Of a stretch of DNA of 64,000 nt, positions 5,969-57,050 are shown piece by piece; the stretch's first letter is position 1, and each line of letters opens with the position of its first letter. A program made the position numbers and the translations under genes. The stretch is from Aquimarina sp. AU474 (lineage in GTDB: Bacteria; Bacteroidota; Bacteroidia; Flavobacteriales; Flavobacteriaceae): assembly GCF_900312815.1 (NCBI RefSeq), contig NZ_OMPE01000006.1, forward strand, positions 1 to 64,000, written 5' to 3'. The notes below the pieces were generated by a model that saw only the letters and a list, made by a program, of their open reading frames with translations, was not told where the DNA came from and did not search any database.

Positions 5969-6721
5969 TTATTTTATGTCGCAATTTTTAAGTACATATT
6001 TCAATGTAAATCTTTCGAGATTTTCACTTACAATGAAATTTCGGACTCTTCGACTATCATTAATTGTATAAAATATTCTGTAAGCTCCTTTTGATAAAGC
6101 AAATTCAATTATCTGGTCATAGAAATATTGTCCATCTAATAATGGATTTCCATTTGTCTCACTGAGATGAATTTTTAAAGGAGATTTATCTTCATTTTCA
6201 AGTCCATTTTCATAAATTCCAATTGAATCATAATCTTTATCACCTTCACTAAATAAATCAATTGGTGTATTGTTCTTAAATAGTAAGCAGAGTCCGTGTT
6301 CACAATCATATTTGAAGTCAAATTCAATTAAAAAGTAAACAGAATCATACGATTCAAGTGGAGCTATTTCAATCCCTTTAACTCCGAAAATTTTTGAAAG
6401 TTCTGATTTGTTGTTTGCAATATCTTCCGCTTCAATGTCTATAGCTGATTTATATACAGGTAGAATCAAGTTTTGATAATAATTCCAAATACCGTCTAAA
6501 ATTGCAAATTCATTTTCTATAACAAACTCAAGTGCTTTTATTTGATTTTCTCTTGGAAATTCAGTATTGTTGAAAGATTCAATTCTGATTTTAATTTCAT
6601 CATTTTCTCTTGGATTCCAACAATAATAATTGAGTGTTTTTAGTATTTCGAAAGAGGGATTATTTGTAGGTTTATAACACCAATAATCTTCCCAGACTTC
6701 GTATTTCTCAAATTCTTTCAA
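5969..6721 (-). CDS. Hypothetical protein, cytosolic, 250 aa
   Basis: I do not recognise this protein. It has no signal peptide or membrane segment, is acidic and rich in aromatic residues, and starts 'MKEFEKYEVWEDYWCYKP'. The middle and C-terminal halves ('SVYFLIEFDFKYDCEHGLCL', then 'LFKNNTPIDLF') vaguely recall DUF6985-type domains found in small accessory genes; that is a weak impression. It stands alone, flanked on both sides by palindromic repeat elements (5874-5960 and 6745-6815), as if it were a movable single-gene unit. Its AT content is higher than that of the neighbouring acyl-CoA ligase. Confidence 0.7.
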   Translation of the reverse strand: MKEFEKYEVWEDYWCYKPTNNPSFEILKTLNYYCWNPRENDEIKIRIESFNNTEFPRENQIKALEFVIENEFAILDGIWNYYQNLILPVYKSAIDIEAEDIANNKSELSKIFGVKGIEIAPLESYDSVYFLIEFDFKYDCEHGLCLLFKNNTPIDLFSEGDKDYDSIGIYENGLENEDKSPLKIHLSETNGNPLLDGQYFYDQIIEFALSKGAYRIFYTINDSRRVRNFIVSENLERFTLKYVLKNCDIK

Positions 6722-6917: not shown

Positions 6918-8042
6918 TTACTTTGGTGTCTCATTTTTGAATAATCCTTTAGTTTTACACTCCTCTAAAAAAACACTCTTAATAAAGCCATAACTGGATA
7001 AAGGAACTTTCTTAGCATCTTTCAATTGAGCCTTGTAATAAGATTCTGCATCATTAATTTCTGATAATTCCGTTGCATTCTCAAATTCATCAATGATAGA
7101 ATCAAACCAAGCTTTACCCTCGCTTGGACTGCATAAAAGAGCTTTATACCTTTCTTCCATTCCAAAAACTCTTAACCATGTATCAACATGTTCGTCATAA
7201 CCAGTCGCTTCTATCTTTAGATCGATTTCACTAGGCCTTAAATTAATTATGTCTTTGGATTTCAAGTCAATCTTTATTTCAATGTTAGGATGTGATTTGG
7301 CATATGGAAAGAAGGCTAAACTCCGATGAGTTTCTTTAATTAATGGGTCTATTTTTTTTACATCATTATTGTAAATAGGAACCTTGGACAGCTTGTATGT
7401 TGAATTACACTCGTGACACATAGGTGCTAGGTTCTTAAAATTCAAACTATTAAAAGGGTATAGTCCTTTTGGAATGTAATGATCATAAGCTTCTCGATAG
7501 CTATGGTTGTTCCCTTTAAGATGATTGATCCCGCAAAATGGACAAACCTCTTTATTGTTTGCCTCCATAAACTTAACATCATACTCTGCAATCAATTTAT
7601 CATTTAAAAAGCCGAAAACTTTCAAATTAAAAGGAGAACTGCTCCCATAAATTCTGCCATAGAACGATTTTAATGCTTTAGCTAGATCTGGGTATTGTCT
7701 TTCTATATCATCATAAGTAATAGGTAAAGAGGATTTGTCTTCACACAATTTCTTTATATTGTTATTTGCCTTATATGCTTTGATCAGGTCTTTCTTAAAT
7801 TTATCGTCTTTAATCTTTACAAACTCATCGAAAATCCAAGCTATTCTCCCATTAAAGAAATTTCCCCACTCGGTATCGTCAATTTCCAGTTGAATACAAA
7901 TGTCGTACAGCTCCTTATTGCCTTTAAGCTTTCTATAATTGAAATTTCCTTTAGCAACAATCCAAACGTTATGGAATAAAAAGTCCAGATACTCCTGAAG
8001 TTTTTCAATATGATGTGGTATATGCTTGTAGGTAAATAACAT
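6918..8042 (-). CDS. HNH endonuclease, PtuB-like, last gene of the restriction operon
   Basis: A 374-residue protein with an HNH nuclease core at about residues 166-214: zinc pair C167/C170 ('CPFCG'), the catalytic 'YDHYIPKGLYP' with D187-H188, and a second pair C209/C212 ('CHECN'). HNH domains cut DNA (or RNA) with a metal ion. The 'DHYxPKxxYP...NLAPMCxxCN' layout recalls the PtuB nuclease of Septu and retron-Ec78 defence systems, although this protein has longer N- and C-terminal parts (about 160 residues each). Its start overlaps the stop of the ATPase gene (TAATG), so the two are translationally coupled. I infer that it is the effector of an ATPase-nuclease defence module attached to the type I system. 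Target and trigger are unknown. Confidence 0.8.
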   Translation of the reverse strand: MLFTYKHIPHHIEKLQEYLDFLFHNVWIVAKGNFNYRKLKGNKELYDICIQLEIDDTEWGNFFNGRIAWIFDEFVKIKDDKFKKDLIKAYKANNNIKKLCEDKSSLPITYDDIERQYPDLAKALKSFYGRIYGSSSPFNLKVFGFLNDKLIAEYDVKFMEANNKEVCPFCGINHLKGNNHSYREAYDHYIPKGLYPFNSLNFKNLAPMCHECNSTYKLSKVPIYNNDVKKIDPLIKETHRSLAFFPYAKSHPNIEIKIDLKSKDIINLRPSEIDLKIEATGYDEHVDTWLRVFGMEERYKALLCSPSEGKAWFDSIIDEFENATELSEINDAESYYKAQLKDAKKVPLSSYGFIKSVFLEECKTKGLFKNETPK

Positions 8043-9868
8043 TATTTAATCGCTTCAATTTTATCCATTATCTTATTGACGAACAGCACTCTCTCAACAG
8101 AGTCTCCCATTTCTGATTTGACTTTTACTATCAATTTCTCCAAGCTCTTCTTCGACTTGAGCCTTTTCAATTCTTTATCAAACTCATTTAATCGCTGCTG
8201 CGCATACTCTCCAATCGTATTTGGCATCTCAAAAATTCGGATACCAATCTTATTAACAGAAGTACCAAACGTTTGAAAACCTGGGCGTAAATTCTCAATC
8301 ACTTTTCCTGTTTCTCTGTCTTTCTTGAATACATGGACATACTCACTTCTGCTATCTGAAATAAGATAAGGTGAGTGTGTCGTGATCAACATTTCACGCA
8401 TTGTTTCTTCACTTGACTTTTCCTCTTTGCTGAAACAATTTCTTAGACTTGTTACAAACTTGGCTTTCCAGTCTGGATTAAAGTGCGTCTCAGGTTCATC
8501 CATTAGAAATAAGCTACGTGTATCTTTAAACAGTAGACAAAGTCCAAGGGAATGAAGAAATTGATGTTCGCCATCTGACAGCGATTTTGTAAAAATCGTT
8601 TCCTTAAGACCTTCTTTTTTAATGTGAAAATCCTTGAATCGAATGATTCGATCTAACTCATTTGGTCGAAGACTGATGTCTTGATTCAAGAACATATTCT
8701 GCGAGCCATAAATATTTGTTTTCTCCTTAATGCTTACCTTGTACAAGTCTTGAACAAGAAGTAATTGGAATAATTCAAACAGTTTTAAAGGATCATGTTC
8801 AAAATGAAATTGGAATGCTTGTTTAGTCGCATCATTGACCTTATAGTCTAGAACCAAATGTTTACTGTCATCAAAGTATTCTTCTAAATCATCCTCCTCT
8901 CGGTACGTGTCATAATTCTGTTGTTCATACCACGAAGAAGCACATCTCTTTAATTTTTCGATATAAGACCGAATGAACACAGAATCTTCACGGTCTTTCA
9001 AATCCAAATTACGAAGAAGATTCACTTTCGATTCGAATGTTGATTTCGTTTTAACATCTTCATCGTCATCTTGGTAACCTGTTATGTTCATGTTGATATC
9101 CTGCCGAATTACCAATCGGAAGGAATCAACGTCAGTTAAACCAACATAGTTCATGAATGGCTCAAGAACCTTTTTCTTGTCAGGGTATTCGATAGAATCC
9201 CACATTAAGAGGTTTGTCAACAAGATGGCTTGGCTATATGATTCTTCGAGATATACAAGTGAAGCCTCTGGGCTGGGACTAACAAACTCTTGAGTTGCTA
9301 ACCCACTTACGTATTCATCGAATTGTAGGAATCGACTTTTGAAGAAGGGCAGACTCAACGTTTCATTGTTTCCAGATGCATAACCCACAACATATTCGGG
9401 CAATAGAAATTTGATTTCCTTTTGAGAAAGTCCTTCTAATTCTGGTGATCGAAACTCAGCTTCATTCACCCATTTAACGATTGGCCTTTCACCAGCCTTC
9501 TTTTCAATAGAAACATGCACTTTCTTGGTTCTGTCGAAATCTCCAAAGTCCTTATCGAGGAAAGTGAAATATTCTAAATCATAGGCATCAATCCGTGATA
9601 CCTTAGGGTCAAATCCCTTTGGGTTCTTCTCACTCTTATAGAAATAGTTTGGTTTGTATGCTAAATAAATGCAATCTAAGTGGAAGAATATTTCAGCTAA
9701 CGCTTCCAATACATTGGACTTTCCACTTCCATTGGATCCTGCGAGTAAATACGGATTAAAATCCGATGCCAAAGAATAATCGAAATCCCTTAGAAAGTAA
9801 ATTTCAAATTCTTTTGGTAAGGACCTGAAGCCTTCCTCTTGGTTTATTTTAAGCCTTAAAAGCTTCAT
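8042..9868 (-). CDS. Restriction-associated AAA/ABC-type ATPase (PtuA-like)
   Basis: This 608-residue ATPase has an SMC/Rad50-like head. It carries Walker A GSNGSGKS at residues 44-51, ABC signature SLSDGEHQ at 429-436, Walker B LFLMDE at 453-458 continuing DEPETHFNP, and the H-loop THSP at 497-500. The approximately 370 residues between Walker A and the signature are acidic and partly helical, and a basic helix closes the protein. It belongs to the AAA_15/AAA_21 group that pairs with effectors in OLD, Septu and retron systems, where ATP hydrolysis is thought to gate a partner nuclease. It begins 20 bases inside the end of hsdS and ends on the start codon of the HNH gene, so it is made together with the restriction subunits. 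Confidence 0.85.
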   Translation of the reverse strand: MKLLRLKINQEEGFRSLPKEFEIYFLRDFDYSLASDFNPYLLAGSNGSGKSNVLEALAEIFFHLDCIYLAYKPNYFYKSEKNPKGFDPKVSRIDAYDLEYFTFLDKDFGDFDRTKKVHVSIEKKAGERPIVKWVNEAEFRSPELEGLSQKEIKFLLPEYVVGYASGNNETLSLPFFKSRFLQFDEYVSGLATQEFVSPSPEASLVYLEESYSQAILLTNLLMWDSIEYPDKKKVLEPFMNYVGLTDVDSFRLVIRQDINMNITGYQDDDEDVKTKSTFESKVNLLRNLDLKDREDSVFIRSYIEKLKRCASSWYEQQNYDTYREEDDLEEYFDDSKHLVLDYKVNDATKQAFQFHFEHDPLKLFELFQLLLVQDLYKVSIKEKTNIYGSQNMFLNQDISLRPNELDRIIRFKDFHIKKEGLKETIFTKSLSDGEHQFLHSLGLCLLFKDTRSLFLMDEPETHFNPDWKAKFVTSLRNCFSKEEKSSEETMREMLITTHSPYLISDSRSEYVHVFKKDRETGKVIENLRPGFQTFGTSVNKIGIRIFEMPNTIGEYAQQRLNEFDKELKRLKSKKSLEKLIVKVKSEMGDSVERVLFVNKIMDKIEAIK

Positions 9869-11552
9869 CAGTCAATCTTAATTTTATTCTGTTATCATTT
9901 TCATCAAAGTACTGATCCACTATCGGAGGGTTTACTTCTATGAATTTAAAGAGATGTTTCTTGTAAACTTCATATTCGAAATCTTTCCCTTTAGGGATGA
10001 AGTATTCATTAAAATCTGCCTCTACTTGATCTAAATCGAAAGGTTCTTTCTTGTATCGGCCTTTCAGAAAGAACTGCCAGAACAATTCTTCTTCTACAAA
10101 GTCAGTCTCGATCGAATAGTCTGAAGCATAATTCTCCATTTGAATTTCTTCGGGCATACCTATGAAATCCAGATAGGTCATTTTTGAGATGTCGATCTTC
10201 TCGCGTTTTGGATCTTTCTTTTTAGGGCTAAATTTTTCTACTTCTTTGTTTAGTTGCTCTTCGAATGTTTCGGGAGTTTCGACTTTATCAGTTGAAAATG
10301 CTCTTGTTTCTTGAATTAAAATATTGCTAATATCTATTTCATCTCCCTTTTTTGGATTTAGAATCCGTTTTTGTATCGTCCTGTTAAGTTCAACTAGTTC
10401 ATCAAAACTTTTATAGGCAACCTTCTTAAGTAACAAAACTTTATCTACAATTTCAGCGAATTGTTTTTGAGCTTTTGGAGAAGGAACGATTATTTCCAAT
10501 TTCTCCAATTGATCTTTTGTTATTGCTTCACGAGTAGCACCTCCTATAGTAGCAATCCGAATCAAGTGTTTTTTGAAATTATCTGAGCATAACAAGTAGT
10601 TCAAGAAATTTGGATTCAACTTAGAGTCTTTGACTCTAATAATGGAAACATGCTGGTTTACTCTAGCTGGTAATATGCTATCTGGAACAACTGTACATCT
10701 GCAAACAGACGCTCCTGTGATGTTGAACAGTACATCTCCACTGTTAACAATCACATTTTTTAGCTTTTCAGCTTGATCATTATCAATACGAGCAAGGTTC
10801 TTCACCTTGAATCGATAATCATGAACATTAAGACTCCTTATCAAAGAAATCCCAACAGTTTTATACGATTCTTTACCTCCTCGTGGTGTTGAGCCGCTAC
10901 CGATTTTTAACGTAAGATTTTCCAAAACATCTGTCTTCCATCCTTTATCATTAAATACAGGATCTCCAAACATTTCAAGAAAAGTAGATTTAAGAAATTT
11001 CTCAAGCAGAGAAATACTTTCTTTTCTTTTAGAGATCAACTTTTCACTATCTGCAAATATTTTAGCAATTCTCTTTTGATCTCCAATTGAAGGTAGGTCA
11101 AATTCAATTTGATTCAGGTTTTTACGAGAAATTCTTTTACGAGTTGTGCCTGTTACATGTCGATTGATCTCCCTTCTAAAAATGTCGTTATTGATTAGAA
11201 ACTTCAGAAATGGAGGATGTACTTCTGAGTTATTAGGTCGAATCACACAGACATCTACTACAGTAACGGCTTTTTGATCTAGACCAGGAAAGATACAGGC
11301 TCTTCCTATGGGGTCAGGCATTCTTGCAACAAGAATATCTCCCTTTTGAAGATATGTACATTTTAATTTTTCAGCTTTTGCCTCGGTCATAAATCGACTA
11401 GACTTATTGATGAATGCTCCATCACCAATATCAGCTAATTGAATCAAACGTACACCCCCAGAAGGATCCTGATCTTTACTTTCTATCCAATCCCCATCTG
11501 TAAAAACTCCTTCAGGGGTAATTAAATCACCAATTGTTTTCAATTTCCCCAT
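9849..11552 (-). CDS. hsdS: Type I restriction-modification specificity subunit with C-terminal extension
   Basis: HsdS reads the two halves of the target site for both the methylase and the nuclease. The first target-recognition domain spans about residues 1-155, the first conserved helix 158-197 ('DQKRIAKIFADSEKLISKRK'), the second recognition domain 200-355, and the second helix 360-400. Beyond a usual HsdS length lie about 165 extra residues: a charged linker (402-455) and a folded-looking acidic segment (456-567, 'MTYLDFIGMPEEI', 'EEELFWQFFLKGRY'). I cannot assign that segment; it may dock HsdR, HsdM or the downstream ATPase. The start overlaps the hsdM stop (TAATG) and the end overlaps the ATPase gene by 20 bases. 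The recognised sequence cannot be deduced. Confidence 0.92.
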   Translation of the reverse strand: MGKLKTIGDLITPEGVFTDGDWIESKDQDPSGGVRLIQLADIGDGAFINKSSRFMTEAKAEKLKCTYLQKGDILVARMPDPIGRACIFPGLDQKAVTVVDVCVIRPNNSEVHPPFLKFLINNDIFRREINRHVTGTTRKRISRKNLNQIEFDLPSIGDQKRIAKIFADSEKLISKRKESISLLEKFLKSTFLEMFGDPVFNDKGWKTDVLENLTLKIGSGSTPRGGKESYKTVGISLIRSLNVHDYRFKVKNLARIDNDQAEKLKNVIVNSGDVLFNITGASVCRCTVVPDSILPARVNQHVSIIRVKDSKLNPNFLNYLLCSDNFKKHLIRIATIGGATREAITKDQLEKLEIIVPSPKAQKQFAEIVDKVLLLKKVAYKSFDELVELNRTIQKRILNPKKGDEIDISNILIQETRAFSTDKVETPETFEEQLNKEVEKFSPKKKDPKREKIDISKMTYLDFIGMPEEIQMENYASDYSIETDFVEEELFWQFFLKGRYKKEPFDLDQVEADFNEYFIPKGKDFEYEVYKKHLFKFIEVNPPIVDQYFDENDNRIKLRLTDEAFKA

Positions 11553-13213
11553 TAGAATAGTTTTTTCAGCTCTTTTAATCCATCAACTATTTCCTTTTCT
11601 AGACCACCTTTTCCGTCTTTGCCTATAAGGCGTTCCAAAATGTCTTCTGGTTTATCATATTCAATCTCTTCGAACACTTCTTCATGGTAGCGAGAGAAAC
11701 TTAAATCGTACCCTTCATCTACAATCTCCTGCTTCGAAACAAAGAAGTGTTTAATTTTTCTATTGTTATCCTTTTTTGGGTTTGCCTTTTCGTATTGCTG
11801 AATAATTTCTTGAAGATCACCGTGATCATCTGCTCCACCTTTTAATTTAAGCGGAGTACGTTTGTCATCCATACTATACCCATCACTCTCCATGTCATAG
11901 AACCAGACATTATCTGTTTCACCACCTTTTGTAAAGATTAAAATAGCAGTACTTACACCAGCATACGGTTTAAAAACACCACTTGGCATGGAGACAACAG
12001 CCTTCAACTGAGATTTTTCAATCATTAACTTTCTAGCATCTTTAAATGCCTTACCTGAGCTAAACAAGACTCCTTGAGGAATAACGATTCCTGCAGTTCC
12101 TCCAGACTTGAGCATGTTAAAAATTCGTTCTATAAATAGAAGTTCAGTCTTCGTTGTTTTAAGGTTAAGCTCTTCATTTATATCTCCCTTATCTACATTA
12201 CCGGTAAATGGAGGGTTCGCTAATACAATGTCGTAATCACCAGTTTCATGATAGCTTTTGCTTAAAGTGTCTTTATAGTTAATCTGAGGGCTATCAATCC
12301 CATGCATCATCAGGTTCATTAGGCCTAATCGAACCATAGTTTGATCAATATCATATCCTCGAAGGTTCTTTCCTATAATTTCTTTGACATCCTCTGTCAA
12401 TTTAGCACTTACACTTGTACGGATAAAACCATCTTCATCAGGTTTTACCTTCTTCAATTCTTTCTTATCGTTCAAGTGAGTAACCATATACTGATATGCA
12501 CCTAACAAGAAACCTCCCGTACCACATGCGGGATCTGCAATTTTTTGCTTCCAAGTTGGCTTAACCATTTCAACTAATAACTTAATGATGTGCCTAGGGG
12601 TTCTGAACTGTCCATTTTTACCAGCGCTAGCTATTTCCTTTAATAGCATTTCATATACGTCCCCTTGAATGTCTTGGAAATCCTGTCCTTTTTCGTCTGC
12701 ATCTTTATCAATCTCATCAAAGATGTCATCAATACTGCTTATCGCTTCTTTTAAAAGAGAGGGTTTCGGAATGATGAACACAGCATTGGCCATGTGCTTA
12801 GAAAAAGGAGAATCTGTTTGGTCAAGTTCTTTTATAAAAGGAAAAGCATAACGTTGCACATGTTCCAACATGGCATCGGTTTTTGTAATTCGTTTTATTT
12901 GACTCCACCTCAAGGAATTCTTATCAACTCCTTTGTCCTTCAGTATTTTTTCAATTTCTTTCTTAGTAGCGTCCTCCTTAGGCCTATCTGCCGGGAGCAA
13001 ATAAACACCTTCGAATTTTGACTTGTATTCATAACCAAAATCTTTAGCATTGGCCATTTCATTTAGATCGTTATCGTCCAATTTTTTCATGAACAACAAA
13101 TAAGTGATTTGCTCAATCGCTGTCAATGGATTTGAGATTCCTCCACTCCAGAATTTTTGCCAGAGGTCATTTATTTTTGATGCAATTGCTGGGTTGCTAC
13201 TTATTAAGCTCAT
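11552..13213 (-). CDS. hsdM: Type I restriction-modification N6-adenine methyltransferase subunit
   Basis: HsdM transfers a methyl group from S-adenosylmethionine to adenine in the site chosen by HsdS. An HsdM N-terminal helical domain covers about residues 10-150. Then follow 'QFRTPRHI' (202), the SAM-binding motif DPACGTGGF (227-235), and the catalytic NPPF (333-336, in 'DIVLANPPFTG'). Its 553 residues are normal for the family. It sits two bases after hsdR and overlaps hsdS by one base. All key residues are present, so modification should be active, protecting the host against HsdR. Confidence 0.95.
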   Translation of the reverse strand: MSLISSNPAIASKINDLWQKFWSGGISNPLTAIEQITYLLFMKKLDDNDLNEMANAKDFGYEYKSKFEGVYLLPADRPKEDATKKEIEKILKDKGVDKNSLRWSQIKRITKTDAMLEHVQRYAFPFIKELDQTDSPFSKHMANAVFIIPKPSLLKEAISSIDDIFDEIDKDADEKGQDFQDIQGDVYEMLLKEIASAGKNGQFRTPRHIIKLLVEMVKPTWKQKIADPACGTGGFLLGAYQYMVTHLNDKKELKKVKPDEDGFIRTSVSAKLTEDVKEIIGKNLRGYDIDQTMVRLGLMNLMMHGIDSPQINYKDTLSKSYHETGDYDIVLANPPFTGNVDKGDINEELNLKTTKTELLFIERIFNMLKSGGTAGIVIPQGVLFSSGKAFKDARKLMIEKSQLKAVVSMPSGVFKPYAGVSTAILIFTKGGETDNVWFYDMESDGYSMDDKRTPLKLKGGADDHGDLQEIIQQYEKANPKKDNNRKIKHFFVSKQEIVDEGYDLSFSRYHEEVFEEIEYDKPEDILERLIGKDGKGGLEKEIVDGLKELKKLF

Positions 13214-13214
13214 A

Positions 13215-16010
13215 TTATGCTGCGAATTTTTCTGTTAATGCTATAATTTCTTTTATTTCTTGTGGAGAGAAAATCCCTCGTATTCCTTTTGGGTGAATAA
13301 TTGTAAATGGAGCTTGAATTAATGCTCGTTTCTCAATGTTCCCTCTTTCAATGATGTAATCTTTTAACAAGTTCAAGAACTCAATTTGCCTCGTGGAAAG
13401 GTTAGTGTGTTCTTGAATAAATTGTTGAACTGCCTTCGTCACTTGCTCATCAAAACTTTCTAAGATTTCTATTCCTAAAATGTGACGAATGAATTCAATG
13501 AATTTTGCCTGCTGGTGTTTGTAAACCTTTCTTAAAAGACTCTCTGTAATGTGAGGATCTTCATCGTGCAGATCATCTGCGAGTTGTTGAGATTCTTCTT
13601 CCGTTACTGCTCCACCAGATTTAATTTTTTGCAGTATCTGATTTTGTTCAGTTAGTTCTGCTATTTTGGCTTCAACCATTTCACGGTATTTTGAAATACT
13701 TACCGCTTCGTTTTGAGGTCCAAACTCAACCATTTCTTTGGTCTGGATAATATCTTTTAAGTCCAATTTTGAAGGCCCGTCAGTTTGGATTCGTTGCTCT
13801 CTGAACTTGATAATTGGTGCAATCGTTTCTGCTAACTCATCTAAACTTTCATCGTCTATATCTGACCAAAACTGACTAGTTAGGACTTGTTTGATGTAAG
13901 CTTCATGCCTTGCAACAATGTTTATTGAAAGAGGTAATTCACTAACTACAGTAATGATATTCTCTTTCAGCGTATCAAACTTTTCTTCTTCCTCAGATAA
14001 ATGAGCTAGACTAATTTCCAATACATCCTTTTTAAATCGCATTGCCTTGAAATCGGTTTGAGACAATGTTCTAAACAATGGTTTTATAGTATGTCTAAGG
14101 AACTCAATTCGCTCCGTTGAAAGATGGTTCCAGAATTCTTCTTGTTCAACTTTCGCCAATTCAGGTTTAGCGTCTTGTATTACTACAGATTTAGCTGGTA
14201 AAGCCTTTATCTGTTCTTTCAGAATTTCGATTTCCTTATTCGCTATTTCTAGTTCATCTTTTTCAATAGCTACTTCAATCTTGTCAATCCTTATTCCAAT
14301 AAATCGAACTGGCAATGGTATCTGTGCTTTTAATTCTTTTCCCTTTGGATTTAATTTAAAGTATTCAAAGTTATCCCAACAGTCCATGATGAGGAAGCTG
14401 TCTTTTTCTGGGCACCATGGTTTCATTTTTGTAGGCTCTAACAATCGAGTTCCTCTACCTATCATTTGCCAGAACTTAGTATAGGAATACACAGGTTTTG
14501 CGAATACTAAATTTACCAGTTCCCTAACGTCAATTCCTGTATCCAACATATCAACGCTCACGGCAACCCTTGGCATATCATTATGCGTGAATTGATGCAA
14601 TAAACCGCCTTTACCATAAACACGTGGATCATCAGATACGATCACTTTTGCTAGTTCCCCAGCATATTCTGGATATAAGGAGTCAAATATTTTTTCAATC
14701 CGTCTGGCATGTGCTTTTGTGGAACAAAAGAATATTGTTTTTCCAGGAAGGACACCATTCGGATCTTTTATACATTCTTCCATAAACTCTTTAACAATTG
14801 TAACATTGGTTCCCTTGTTAATGACCGATTTTTCGAGGTCAGTTCCTTCAAAATTAATTTCTGCAACCTCCTTTCCATCAAGGATCAAATTCTTTTGATC
14901 TTCAAGGCTAATCGTTCTTTTACTTATTCCTTCTTCCTGAAACTTTGTTTGGATTTTCATTACTTGAAAATCGCACAAATAAGGAGGGACATTATTTACT
15001 GCTTCCTCATAGGAATAGGCAAACGTAGGTATACCATCTTCACATTTAAAAAGCTTAAATGTATTATGGTCAATAACATCAGTTGGTGTTGCGGTTAACC
15101 CAAGTGTTATTGTATTGAAGTAGTCCAGTACTTCCTGATATGTATTGTAGATTGATCGATGACTTTCATCAACTACTATCAGATCAAAAAAATGAGGAGA
15201 TAAAGAATACTCTTCATCTCTAATAATGTTCAGCATTGTGGGGTAAGTAGCTGTATAAACCTTTCTGTCTTTAGCTATTGTTTTCTCTCCAACTTTTGGC
15301 CACCTTGGTTCATTTGGAAGATGTTCCTTAAATGCTTCTAAGGCTTGATTTCTAAGGGCTATCCTATCAACTAAAAATAAGATTCGTTCAGCCCATCCAG
15401 CACTCATCAGTGCATCAACCATGGCAATAGTGGTCCTAGTTTTACCCGTCCCTGTTGCCATTACTAATAGAAATTTCCTTCTCTTCTTTTCGATTCCTTC
15501 CATTACAGAACGTATCGCATGTATCTGGTAATCTCGTCCAGCGACATCCGTATTGATCAGCTCACGAGCAAGTGGTTTTCTATTCTTTCTAATGTACAAG
15601 TATCGCTCAAGATCATCACGAGTCGGAAACCCAACAACCTTTCTTGGAGGGTAATTACCTAAGTCCCAGAAATATATTTCGTGTCCGTTTGTATAAAAAC
15701 AAAAAGGAAGTTCACCACCAGATTCTTTCTGAATATTGTGACAATATTGTTTAGCTTGCTCTCTCCCAAGTTCAGCGTTTACAGAAGTCTTCTTCGCTTC
15801 AACAACTGCTAAAGCATTTCCATCTTTCCCATGTAGAACATAGTCCGAATATTGATGACCTTGATACGGGGTTTGAGGCTCATTAACTCCTTCAGGAAGA
15901 CCTACATTAATATCATACTCAACTGATACCTGAGTACGATCATTAATGTTCCAACCAGCTTCATGCAGTTGTTTATCGATTAGTTCTTTCCTTGTTTTAG
16001 CCTCGTTCAT
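13215..16010 (-). CDS. hsdR: Type I restriction endonuclease subunit (translocase/nuclease)
   Basis: HsdR pumps DNA with ATP and cleaves unmodified DNA away from the site. The N-terminal PD-(D/E)xK nuclease reads D56 ('YSDYVLHG') and E71-A-K73 ('VVEAKK'). The superfamily 2 motor has ATGTGKT (185-191), DESH (281-284), GLTATP (304-309) and the motif VI-like 'QMIGRGTRL'. The last third matches the helical EcoEI-type R C-terminal region. At 931 residues it is full length with no broken motif. The gene starts two bases after the XRE regulator gene and is followed immediately by hsdM, so restriction and modification are co-expressed. The order R-M-S puts the toxic subunit first, which makes upstream control important. 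Confidence 0.95.
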   Translation of the reverse strand: MNEAKTRKELIDKQLHEAGWNINDRTQVSVEYDINVGLPEGVNEPQTPYQGHQYSDYVLHGKDGNALAVVEAKKTSVNAELGREQAKQYCHNIQKESGGELPFCFYTNGHEIYFWDLGNYPPRKVVGFPTRDDLERYLYIRKNRKPLARELINTDVAGRDYQIHAIRSVMEGIEKKRRKFLLVMATGTGKTRTTIAMVDALMSAGWAERILFLVDRIALRNQALEAFKEHLPNEPRWPKVGEKTIAKDRKVYTATYPTMLNIIRDEEYSLSPHFFDLIVVDESHRSIYNTYQEVLDYFNTITLGLTATPTDVIDHNTFKLFKCEDGIPTFAYSYEEAVNNVPPYLCDFQVMKIQTKFQEEGISKRTISLEDQKNLILDGKEVAEINFEGTDLEKSVINKGTNVTIVKEFMEECIKDPNGVLPGKTIFFCSTKAHARRIEKIFDSLYPEYAGELAKVIVSDDPRVYGKGGLLHQFTHNDMPRVAVSVDMLDTGIDVRELVNLVFAKPVYSYTKFWQMIGRGTRLLEPTKMKPWCPEKDSFLIMDCWDNFEYFKLNPKGKELKAQIPLPVRFIGIRIDKIEVAIEKDELEIANKEIEILKEQIKALPAKSVVIQDAKPELAKVEQEEFWNHLSTERIEFLRHTIKPLFRTLSQTDFKAMRFKKDVLEISLAHLSEEEEKFDTLKENIITVVSELPLSINIVARHEAYIKQVLTSQFWSDIDDESLDELAETIAPIIKFREQRIQTDGPSKLDLKDIIQTKEMVEFGPQNEAVSISKYREMVEAKIAELTEQNQILQKIKSGGAVTEEESQQLADDLHDEDPHITESLLRKVYKHQQAKFIEFIRHILGIEILESFDEQVTKAVQQFIQEHTNLSTRQIEFLNLLKDYIIERGNIEKRALIQAPFTIIHPKGIRGIFSPQEIKEIIALTEKFAA

Positions 16011-16012
16011 TA

Positions 16013-16231
16013 TTAATCATTCTCCAATTTCAAATCACTAAACACTTCCTTAAACATTTCTCCCGGATCAATATCAATTGCCAAAGCAATTAGATACAAT
16101 TCATCTGCACGTAGTTTTGTCGATTCATTTGAAGTCAACTGAGAAAGTCGAGCTTGACTGATTCCTGTTCGCCTGGAAACCATTGCTCTATTCACAGATT
16201 TCTTAGTAAGATATAGTCCTAAAGATGTCAT
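16013..16231 (-). CDS. XRE-family HTH regulator heading the restriction operon
   Basis: A 72-residue protein that is almost only a helix-turn-helix domain: 'VNRAMVSRRTGISQARLSQL' followed by 'TSNESTKLRADELYLIALAI'. It resembles short C-protein-type or XRE repressors that delay restriction-gene expression. It is the first gene of the operon and is separated from hsdR by two bases. Facing it upstream are palindromic TTTAGAnnnTCTAAA sites (16279-16347), which I infer it binds, autoregulating the whole six-gene unit and possibly the divergent small gene at 16371. Confidence 0.88.
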   Translation of the reverse strand: MTSLGLYLTKKSVNRAMVSRRTGISQARLSQLTSNESTKLRADELYLIALAIDIDPGEMFKEVFSDLKLEND

Positions 16232-56873: not shown

Positions 56874-56945
56874 GCGAAAGTAGCTCAGGGGTAGAGCATC
56901 ACCTTGCCAAGGTGAGGGTCGCGGGTTCAAATCCCGTCTTTCGCT
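56874..56945 (+). tRNA. tRNA-Gly(GCC)
   Basis: The acceptor stem GCGAAAG pairs with CTTTCGC. The anticodon stem TCACC/GGTGA encloses loop TTGCCAA, giving anticodon GCC. The T arm GGGTTCAAATCCC is standard. The CCA end is not encoded. Confidence 0.96.
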
Positions 56946-56961
56946 CTGAGATACGCACCAT

Positions 56962-57046
56962 GCTGAAGTGGTGGAATTGGTAGACACGTTGGACTTAAAA
57001 TCCAATGGCCTGTAAGGCCGTGCGGGTTCAAGTCCCGCCTTCAGTA
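56962..57046 (+). tRNA. tRNA-Leu(TAA)
   Basis: The 85-base class II tRNA has acceptor GCTGAAG paired with CTTCAGT (first pair G-T), anticodon stem TTGGA/TCCAA enclosing CTTAAAA (anticodon TAA), a variable arm around GGCCTGTAAGGCC, and T arm GCGGGTTCAAGTCCCGC. The CCA end is not encoded. Confidence 0.95.
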
Positions 57047-57050
57047 CTAA

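What the first reader, a model, noticed from the sequence alone, without database searches (positions are those of the whole stretch)
6918..16231. Six-gene operon: XRE regulator + type I R-M (HsdR, HsdM, HsdS) + AAA ATPase + HNH nuclease
All six genes run on one strand with gaps of 1-2 bases or overlaps of 1-20 bases, so stoichiometry looks controlled. The last two genes have intact PtuA-like (Walker A, SDGEHQ signature, DEPETH, THSP) and PtuB-like (CxxC, DH, CxxC) motifs, i.e. a Septu-type module fused at operon level to a complete type I system. Known biology: 'restriction-linked' ATPases occur near type I loci, and ATPase-HNH pairs act alone or with retrons. Inference: the ATPase-HNH pair may be a second layer that fires when restriction is inhibited, or may use HsdS/HsdM as its sensor.
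Basis: partly seen in the sequence, partly recalled or inferred. Interest (0 to 1): 0.78.

Follow-up and report, generated by a model that had tools for sequence, protein, structure and literature searches.

The report
Type I modification guiding Septu-like nuclease
A bacterial DNA-marking (restriction-modification) operon carries a second weapon, an ATPase plus a nuclease related to the Septu anti-phage system, and relatives that lack the usual DNA-cutting gene but keep this pair suggest that the marking machinery can aim it directly.

Summary
The operon is real and at the stated coordinates: XRE, HsdR, HsdM, HsdS, ATPase, HNH on the minus strand, with gaps of 1-2 bp or overlaps of 1-20 bp. 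The ATPase belongs to a family NCBI already names 'restriction system-associated AAA family ATPase' (TIGR04435, 682 bits), so linkage to restriction genes is not new. Its profile hits in the PDB are PtuA or retron ATPases where named; the HNH protein resembles retron PtuB in fold only.

Three results go beyond the finding. (1) hsdS lies directly upstream of the ATPase in 20 of 20 genomes over the family cut-off; HNH follows in 19 of 20. (2) Eight loci, one supported clade, are M-S-ATPase-HNH with no HsdR beside them; 12 of 14 HSDR_N hits elsewhere in such genomes sit beside their own M and S, and 2 are fragments. (3) HsdS has a 77-313-aa C-terminal extension in 26 of 26 loci with ATPase and HNH; 22 of 23 informative control loci lack it, as does the one locus with ATPase but no HNH. 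It ends in a predicted winged helix in the window's HsdS.

Best reading: HsdM-HsdS recruits a Septu-type effector through the HsdS tail, beside HsdR here and without it elsewhere. No function was tested.

The parts
16013..16231 (-). XRE/HTH_26 regulator, 72 aa, first gene of the operon; not conserved in relatives
   Evidence: profile matched only the window among the first set of loci
13215..16010 (-). HsdR, 931 aa (HSDR_N, ResIII helicase, EcoEI_R_C)
11552..13213 (-). HsdM, 553 aa, m6A methyltransferase subunit; DPACGTG at residue 227, NPPF at residue 333
9849..11552 (-). HsdS, 567 aa, two Methylase_S stretches plus C-terminal extension
9852..10370 (-). C-terminal extension of HsdS (residues 395-567)
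   Evidence: present in 26 of 26 measured loci with ATPase+HNH, absent in 22 of 23 informative controls
9852..10106 (-). predicted winged-helix module at the end of the extension (about residues 483-567)
   Evidence: AlphaFold model, pLDDT mostly 75-97 from model residue 91; winged-helix proteins lead both fold comparisons
8042..9868 (-). PtuA-like AAA/ABC-type ATPase, 608 aa, family TIGR04435
   Evidence: 682.2 bits against cut-off 300; profile hits in PDB are PtuA or retron ATPases where named
9716..9739 (-). ATPase Walker A, GSNGSGKS (residues 44-51)
8561..8578 (-). ATPase signature SDGEHQ (residues 431-436)
8483..8500 (-). ATPase DEPETH (Walker B, residues 457-462)
6918..8042 (-). PtuB-like HNH protein, 374 aa
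   Evidence: fold resemblance to retron I-A HNH nucleases
7404..7544 (-). HNH core CPFC...DH...CHECN (residues 167-213)

Best explanation
[quoted passage not shown] SHOWN: hsdS, ATPase and HNH form one conserved, translationally overlapping unit; HsdS in that unit has an extra C-terminal segment; relatives exist that keep M, S, ATPase and HNH with intact motifs but have no HsdR beside them. INFERRED: the HsdM-HsdS complex scans DNA and reads methylation of its target sites as in any type I enzyme; when it stays on unmethylated (foreign) sites, the HsdS C-terminal extension, which ends in a winged helix, acts as the docking or trigger surface for the PtuA-like ATPase and the HNH protein. ATP binding or hydrolysis by the ATPase then releases the HNH nuclease, which cleaves DNA or, as for Septu EcB88 and retron-Eco7, a tRNA. 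In the window the pair works beside HsdR; in the HsdR-less clade it is the only effector.
For: hsdS directly upstream of the ATPase in 20 of 20 genomes over the cut-off, HNH downstream in 19 of 20, hsdM upstream of hsdS in 18 of 20 (one at a contig edge, one without M) (for the genomes; 34, 36, 37, 38 for the neighbourhoods). S and ATPase ORFs overlap in 26 of 29 loci, while R and M can be 849-1487 bp apart. HsdR-less M-S-ATPase-HNH loci: 8 chromosomal, one clade at 99/97 in the ATPase tree and 100/100 in the HsdM tree, catalytic motifs kept with the regex misses listed in the Against line; of 14 HSDR_N hits in 8 of 9 such genomes 12 lie beside their own M and S and 2 are fragments; no full-length window-type HsdR in the 4 of these genomes searched with it. 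Extension of HsdS: 77-313 aa in 26 of 26 loci with both genes; at most 50 aa in 22 of 23 informative controls (Mann-Whitney p 4e-8); 12 aa in L081, which has the ATPase but no HNH. On the HsdM tree the pair's state changes 10 times and the extension goes the same way in 6-7 independent pairs, the other way in 0, undecided in 2 (p 0.016; p 0.031 without one truncated control). L063 and L085: R 94% and M 95% identical in DNA, cassette present in one and absent in the other.
Against: No experiment. Nothing shows physical contact of HsdS with the ATPase or HNH. The extension is poorly conserved (mean column identity 23%) and matches no Pfam family in numbers. L091 has a 226-aa HsdS extension of other sequence and no ATPase or HNH hit by profile. 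L081 has the ATPase but neither HNH nor extension, so the extension may serve HNH rather than the ATPase, on one case. The HsdR-less state is essentially one clade in the ATPase tree (2 changes), so it is few independent events, and the root is not known. My HsdR profile misses many HsdR families (10 of the 12 real ones), so absence leans on the HSDR_N search; a 572-aa helicase-like ORF (58 bits) lies upstream of one HsdR-less locus (L119). In one search the simple patterns missed in several loci (for example the SAM motif pattern in many HsdM and CxxCN in L071 and L075), so 'intact' is by homology plus most motifs.
Confidence: 0.55

Rival explanations
1. Guard model (PrrC-like). HsdM-HsdS, or HsdRMS where R is present, holds the ATPase-HNH pair silent; when a phage anti-restriction protein binds the complex, the pair is released and stops infection by cleaving tRNA or DNA. 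In HsdR-less loci HsdM-HsdS is then a decoy.
For: PrrC is encoded inside the EcoprrI type IC locus and is activated when EcoPrrI is inhibited by T4 Stp (PMC12707154, passages). Septu EcB88 and retron-Eco7 PtuAB target tRNA-Tyr (PMC13096335 and PMC11555353, passages). In HsdR-positive relatives the cassette comes and goes, as an add-on would.
Against: It does not need a methylation sensor, yet HsdM motifs NPPF are kept in the HsdR-less loci. It gives no special reason for HsdR to be absent in a long-lived clade.
Confidence: 0.27
2. HsdM-HsdS-ATPase-HNH is an epigenetic or regulatory unit: methylation is the output and the ATPase-HNH pair controls or protects the methyltransferase.
For: HsdR is dispensable in one clade; orphan methyltransferases are common in general (recalled).
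Against: Relatives of the pair (PtuAB) are anti-phage effectors whose ATPase and HNH motifs are both essential (PMC13096335, passages); HNH catalytic residues are conserved.
Confidence: 0.08
3. Chance or defence-island adjacency: a Septu-like pair that works alone and happens to lie next to hsd genes.
For: Defence genes cluster; Septu is found embedded in Hma systems (PMC12255303, passage).
Against: 20 of 20 genomes have the same hsdS-ATPase order; HsdS extension tracks the pair; distances of ATPase, HNH, HsdM and HsdS correlate across 24 loci (r 0.46-0.77, 0 of 2000 permutations as high; shared organism history also contributes).
Confidence: 0.05

Closest known systems
TIGR04435 'restriction system-associated AAA family ATPase' (NCBIfam)
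   Same: The window ATPase is a full-length member, 682.2 bits against a cut-off of 300; the family name already states the link to restriction systems.
   Different: The family model covers one protein. The searches made here found no description of the HNH partner, the HsdR-less form or the HsdS extension (listings, plus passages of six papers).
Septu (PtuA-PtuB), including retron type I-A effectors
   Different: NCBI's PtuA and PtuB models are far below cut-off (55.1 of 500; 13.2 of 150); the pair is joined to hsdS; HNH protein is longer (374 aa; the two retron chains are 225 and 206 aa).
Type I restriction-modification (HsdRMS)
   Same: Window has all three subunits with their Pfam domains.
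   Different: Extended HsdS and two extra genes; a clade of relatives has no HsdR beside M-S.
PrrC/EcoprrI and PrrC170 (ATPase-type tRNA nuclease in a type I locus)
   Same: An ATPase-type toxin sits within a type I locus (passages in PMC12707154 and PMC11555353).
   Different: PrrC is one protein and is tied to HsdR-containing enzymes; here ATPase and HNH are separate and HsdR can be missing.
DarTG2 embedded in a type I system (RRDM island, repressor RptR)
   Same: Another defence module inside a type I operon, under a small (9-kDa) repressor (PMC12255303, passages).
   Different: Other effector, placed between hsdS and hsdR; relation of RptR to the window's XRE was not tested.
MADS (methylation-associated defense system)
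   Same: Combines a methyltransferase, an HsdS-like protein and an AAA ATPase (names from NCBIfam).
   Different: Scores far below cut-off: MAD2 129.4 of 720, MAD5 67.8 of 400, MAD3 17.6 of 420.

Membership tests
TIGR04435 | score over the curated cut-off (300 bits), full length | tested here: met
   682.2 bits, residues 1-603, profile 1-566 of 568
Type I restriction-modification | HsdR with HSDR_N and ResIII domains | tested here: met
   41.0 and 140.6 bits, cut-offs 25.1 and 22.5
Type I restriction-modification | HsdM (N6_Mtase, NPPF) and two-domain HsdS | tested here: met
   N6_Mtase 205.8 bits; Methylase_S in two stretches; NPPF at residue 333
Type I restriction-modification | sequence-specific methylation and restriction | not testable with these tools
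   needs methylome and restriction assays
Septu | PtuA by NCBIfam NF041760 cut-off (500 bits) | tested here: not met
   55.1 bits; relatives 28.3-53.8 bits
Septu | PtuB by NCBIfam NF041761 cut-off (150 bits) | tested here: not met
   13.2 bits
Septu | ATPase homologous to PtuA | tested here: met
   11 PDB sequences hit by the ATPase profile at E <= 0.001: 5 named PtuA, 3 retron ATPase, 3 only 'AAA family ATPase', one of these in a retron I-A complex by title; the best matched stretch is the C-terminal part; PADLOC PtuA model 170 bits over residues 1-575
Septu | HNH protein with the PtuB fold | tested here: inconclusive
Septu | stand-alone ptuA-ptuB operon | tested here: not met
   hsdS directly upstream in 20 of 20 genomes
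Retron type I-A | reverse transcriptase and retron RNA beside the pair | tested here: inconclusive
   Rfam found only two tRNAs in the window; none of the seven proteins scanned matched a reverse transcriptase in Pfam; other ORFs were not scanned
MADS | MAD2, MAD3, MAD5 over NCBIfam cut-offs | tested here: not met
   129.4/720, 17.6/420, 67.8/400
PrrC anticodon nuclease | PrrC family match and silencing by the type I enzyme | not tested
   no PrrC profile was compared; silencing needs experiments

The most novel reading that the evidence does not exclude
HsdM-HsdS-ATPase-HNH loci without HsdR are a distinct kind of methylation-guided immunity in which the type I specificity complex, through a winged-helix tail on HsdS, aims a Septu-type effector instead of the classical translocating HsdR; the window shows the two-effector form that links it to ordinary type I systems.
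Probability: 0.5. Interest if true: 0.85.

Novelty: new variant of a known kind. Interest (0 to 1): 0.68.

Why it matters
Septu and retron PtuAB are potent effectors whose trigger is the open question. If HsdM-HsdS is the trigger in this lineage, it gives a defined, sequence-programmable sensor (unmethylated target sites) for a PtuAB-like effector, and it shows that a type I specificity complex can command a non-HsdR effector. HsdR-less loci make the question directly testable in a four-gene system, and the HsdS extension gives a small target for mutation.

Full report
OBSERVATION. The six genes lie on the minus strand exactly as described, with junctions of 1-2 bp gaps or 1-20 bp overlaps. 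Pfam identifies XRE, HsdR, HsdM and HsdS. NCBIfam places the ATPase in TIGR04435, 'restriction system-associated AAA family ATPase', at 682.2 bits against a cut-off of 300. The link of this ATPase to restriction systems was therefore known to curators. The HNH protein has no Pfam family above cut-off; PADLOC's best hits are candidate families PDC-M62B and PDC-M01B (52.5 and 42.4 bits). A survey paper treats PDC-M62 and PDC-M01 as duplicates of Septu in many genomes (PMC11811056, passages).

NEIGHBOURHOOD SURVEY. Genome searches with TIGR04435 found matches over the cut-off in 8 of 395 (phylum), 8 of 395 (class), 3 of 86 (family of G071), 2 of 398 (phylum of G730, itself chosen because it had one) and 5 of 395 (order) genomes; these are 20 different genomes. 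Neighbourhoods: hsdS directly upstream in 20 of 20 (in G495 a 268-aa ORF near the contig end), HNH downstream in 19 of 20 (not in G1441), hsdM upstream of hsdS in 18 of 20 (G495 contig edge; G594 has no M there). A window-type HsdR is present in 9, absent in 8 and undetermined in 3 (G217, G495, G594). Further loci came from contig collections and plasmids, among them HsdR-less plasmid loci of Priestia and Hymenobacter.

HSDR-LESS LOCI. Eight chromosomal loci (L068, L069, L071, L074, L075, L078, L079, L080) are M-S-ATPase-HNH. Large neighbouring ORFs scanned by Pfam were unrelated: laminin-G/FG-GAP repeats, TonB receptor, TPR, patatin; in the Priestia plasmid the neighbours are a Schlafen-type helicase and an MrcB_N protein. 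In the nine genomes searched (the eight plus G594), HSDR_N gave 14 hits in 8 genomes; 12 lie beside their own M and S, and the other two are weak and short (38.4 bits, 358 aa; 28 bits, 164 aa). Flanks of about 20-30 kb of seven of the loci held no window-type HsdR; one helicase-like ORF (572 aa, 58 bits) lies upstream in G1474. My HsdR profile missed 10 of the 12 real HsdR of other families, so absence rests on both searches together. A search of 4 of the 8 genomes with the window HsdR found only helicase-domain matches of 70 and 44 bits. In the ATPase tree the eight form one clade (99/97), the window lies in a 14-row clade in which 11 rows have HsdR and 3 are undetermined (97/97), and the HsdR state needs 2 changes. 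In the HsdM tree the eight are again one clade (100/100), all with the pair. Motifs of HsdM (NPPF), ATPase and HNH are kept, though simple patterns missed in some, for example CxxCN in L071 and L075.

COUPLING. ORFs of S and ATPase overlap in 26 of 29 loci, whereas R and M are 849 and 1487 bp apart in two. Distances among ATPase, HNH, HsdM and HsdS correlate over 24 loci (r 0.46-0.77; 0 of 2000 permutations), partly from shared organism history. Loci with the pair lack HsdR in 11 of 24 cases against 2 of 25 without it (p 0.0036), not corrected for descent.

MECHANISM. Shown: conserved coupling, the extension, HsdR-less relatives. Established elsewhere: type I M2S reads methylation; both ATPase and HNH motifs of Septu EcB88 are essential and it cleaves tRNA-Tyr, as retron-Eco7 does (PMC13096335, PMC11555353; passages). 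Inferred: HsdS tail docks or triggers the pair when M2S meets unmethylated sites. The main rival is a PrrC-like guard (PMC12707154, passage). The DNA or tRNA target is open.

NOVELTY. Paper searches (listings, with passages of six papers) showed no description of an hsdS-ATPase-HNH unit, an HsdR-less form or the HsdS extension. Preprints and most subscription papers are not in the library, and a preprint on defences embedded in other systems (Payne et al. 2024, seen only as a reference) may touch on it. I rate it a new variant of a known kind.

Noticed in passing
window 5969-6721 (-): A 250-aa protein with a DUF6985 match (33.3 bits) follows the HNH gene on the same strand after 196 bp; its profile matched only itself among the first set of loci.
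   Followed up: partly
L087 6898-7242 (-), L089 316-660 (-): An ORF fuses the first HsdS residues to the last part of the HNH protein beside hsdM: a deletion scar of the S-ATPase-HNH cassette.
   Followed up: partly
L044 3775-12438 (+): A viral contig carries R-M-S plus a distant PtuA-like ATPase and a PtuB-like protein: a second, independent-looking coupling of a Septu-like pair to a type I system.
   Followed up: partly
L036 8691-14125, L077 7353-13267: Gene order S-ATPase-HNH-M instead of M-S-ATPase-HNH.
   Followed up: no
L063 4424-5932, L032 6166-6981: Extra genes of 502 and 271 aa sit between hsdR and hsdM in some relatives.
   Followed up: no
G000:C4:360701-361153 (own genome): A second HSDR_N match with an in-frame TAG lies on another contig of the window's genome.
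   Followed up: no
window 56874-57047 (+): tRNA-Gly and tRNA-Leu genes in tandem.
   Followed up: no
L091 9183-10973 (+): A 596-aa HsdS with a different long C-terminal extension and no ATPase or HNH hit by profile beside it: possibly another kind of adaptor.
   Followed up: no
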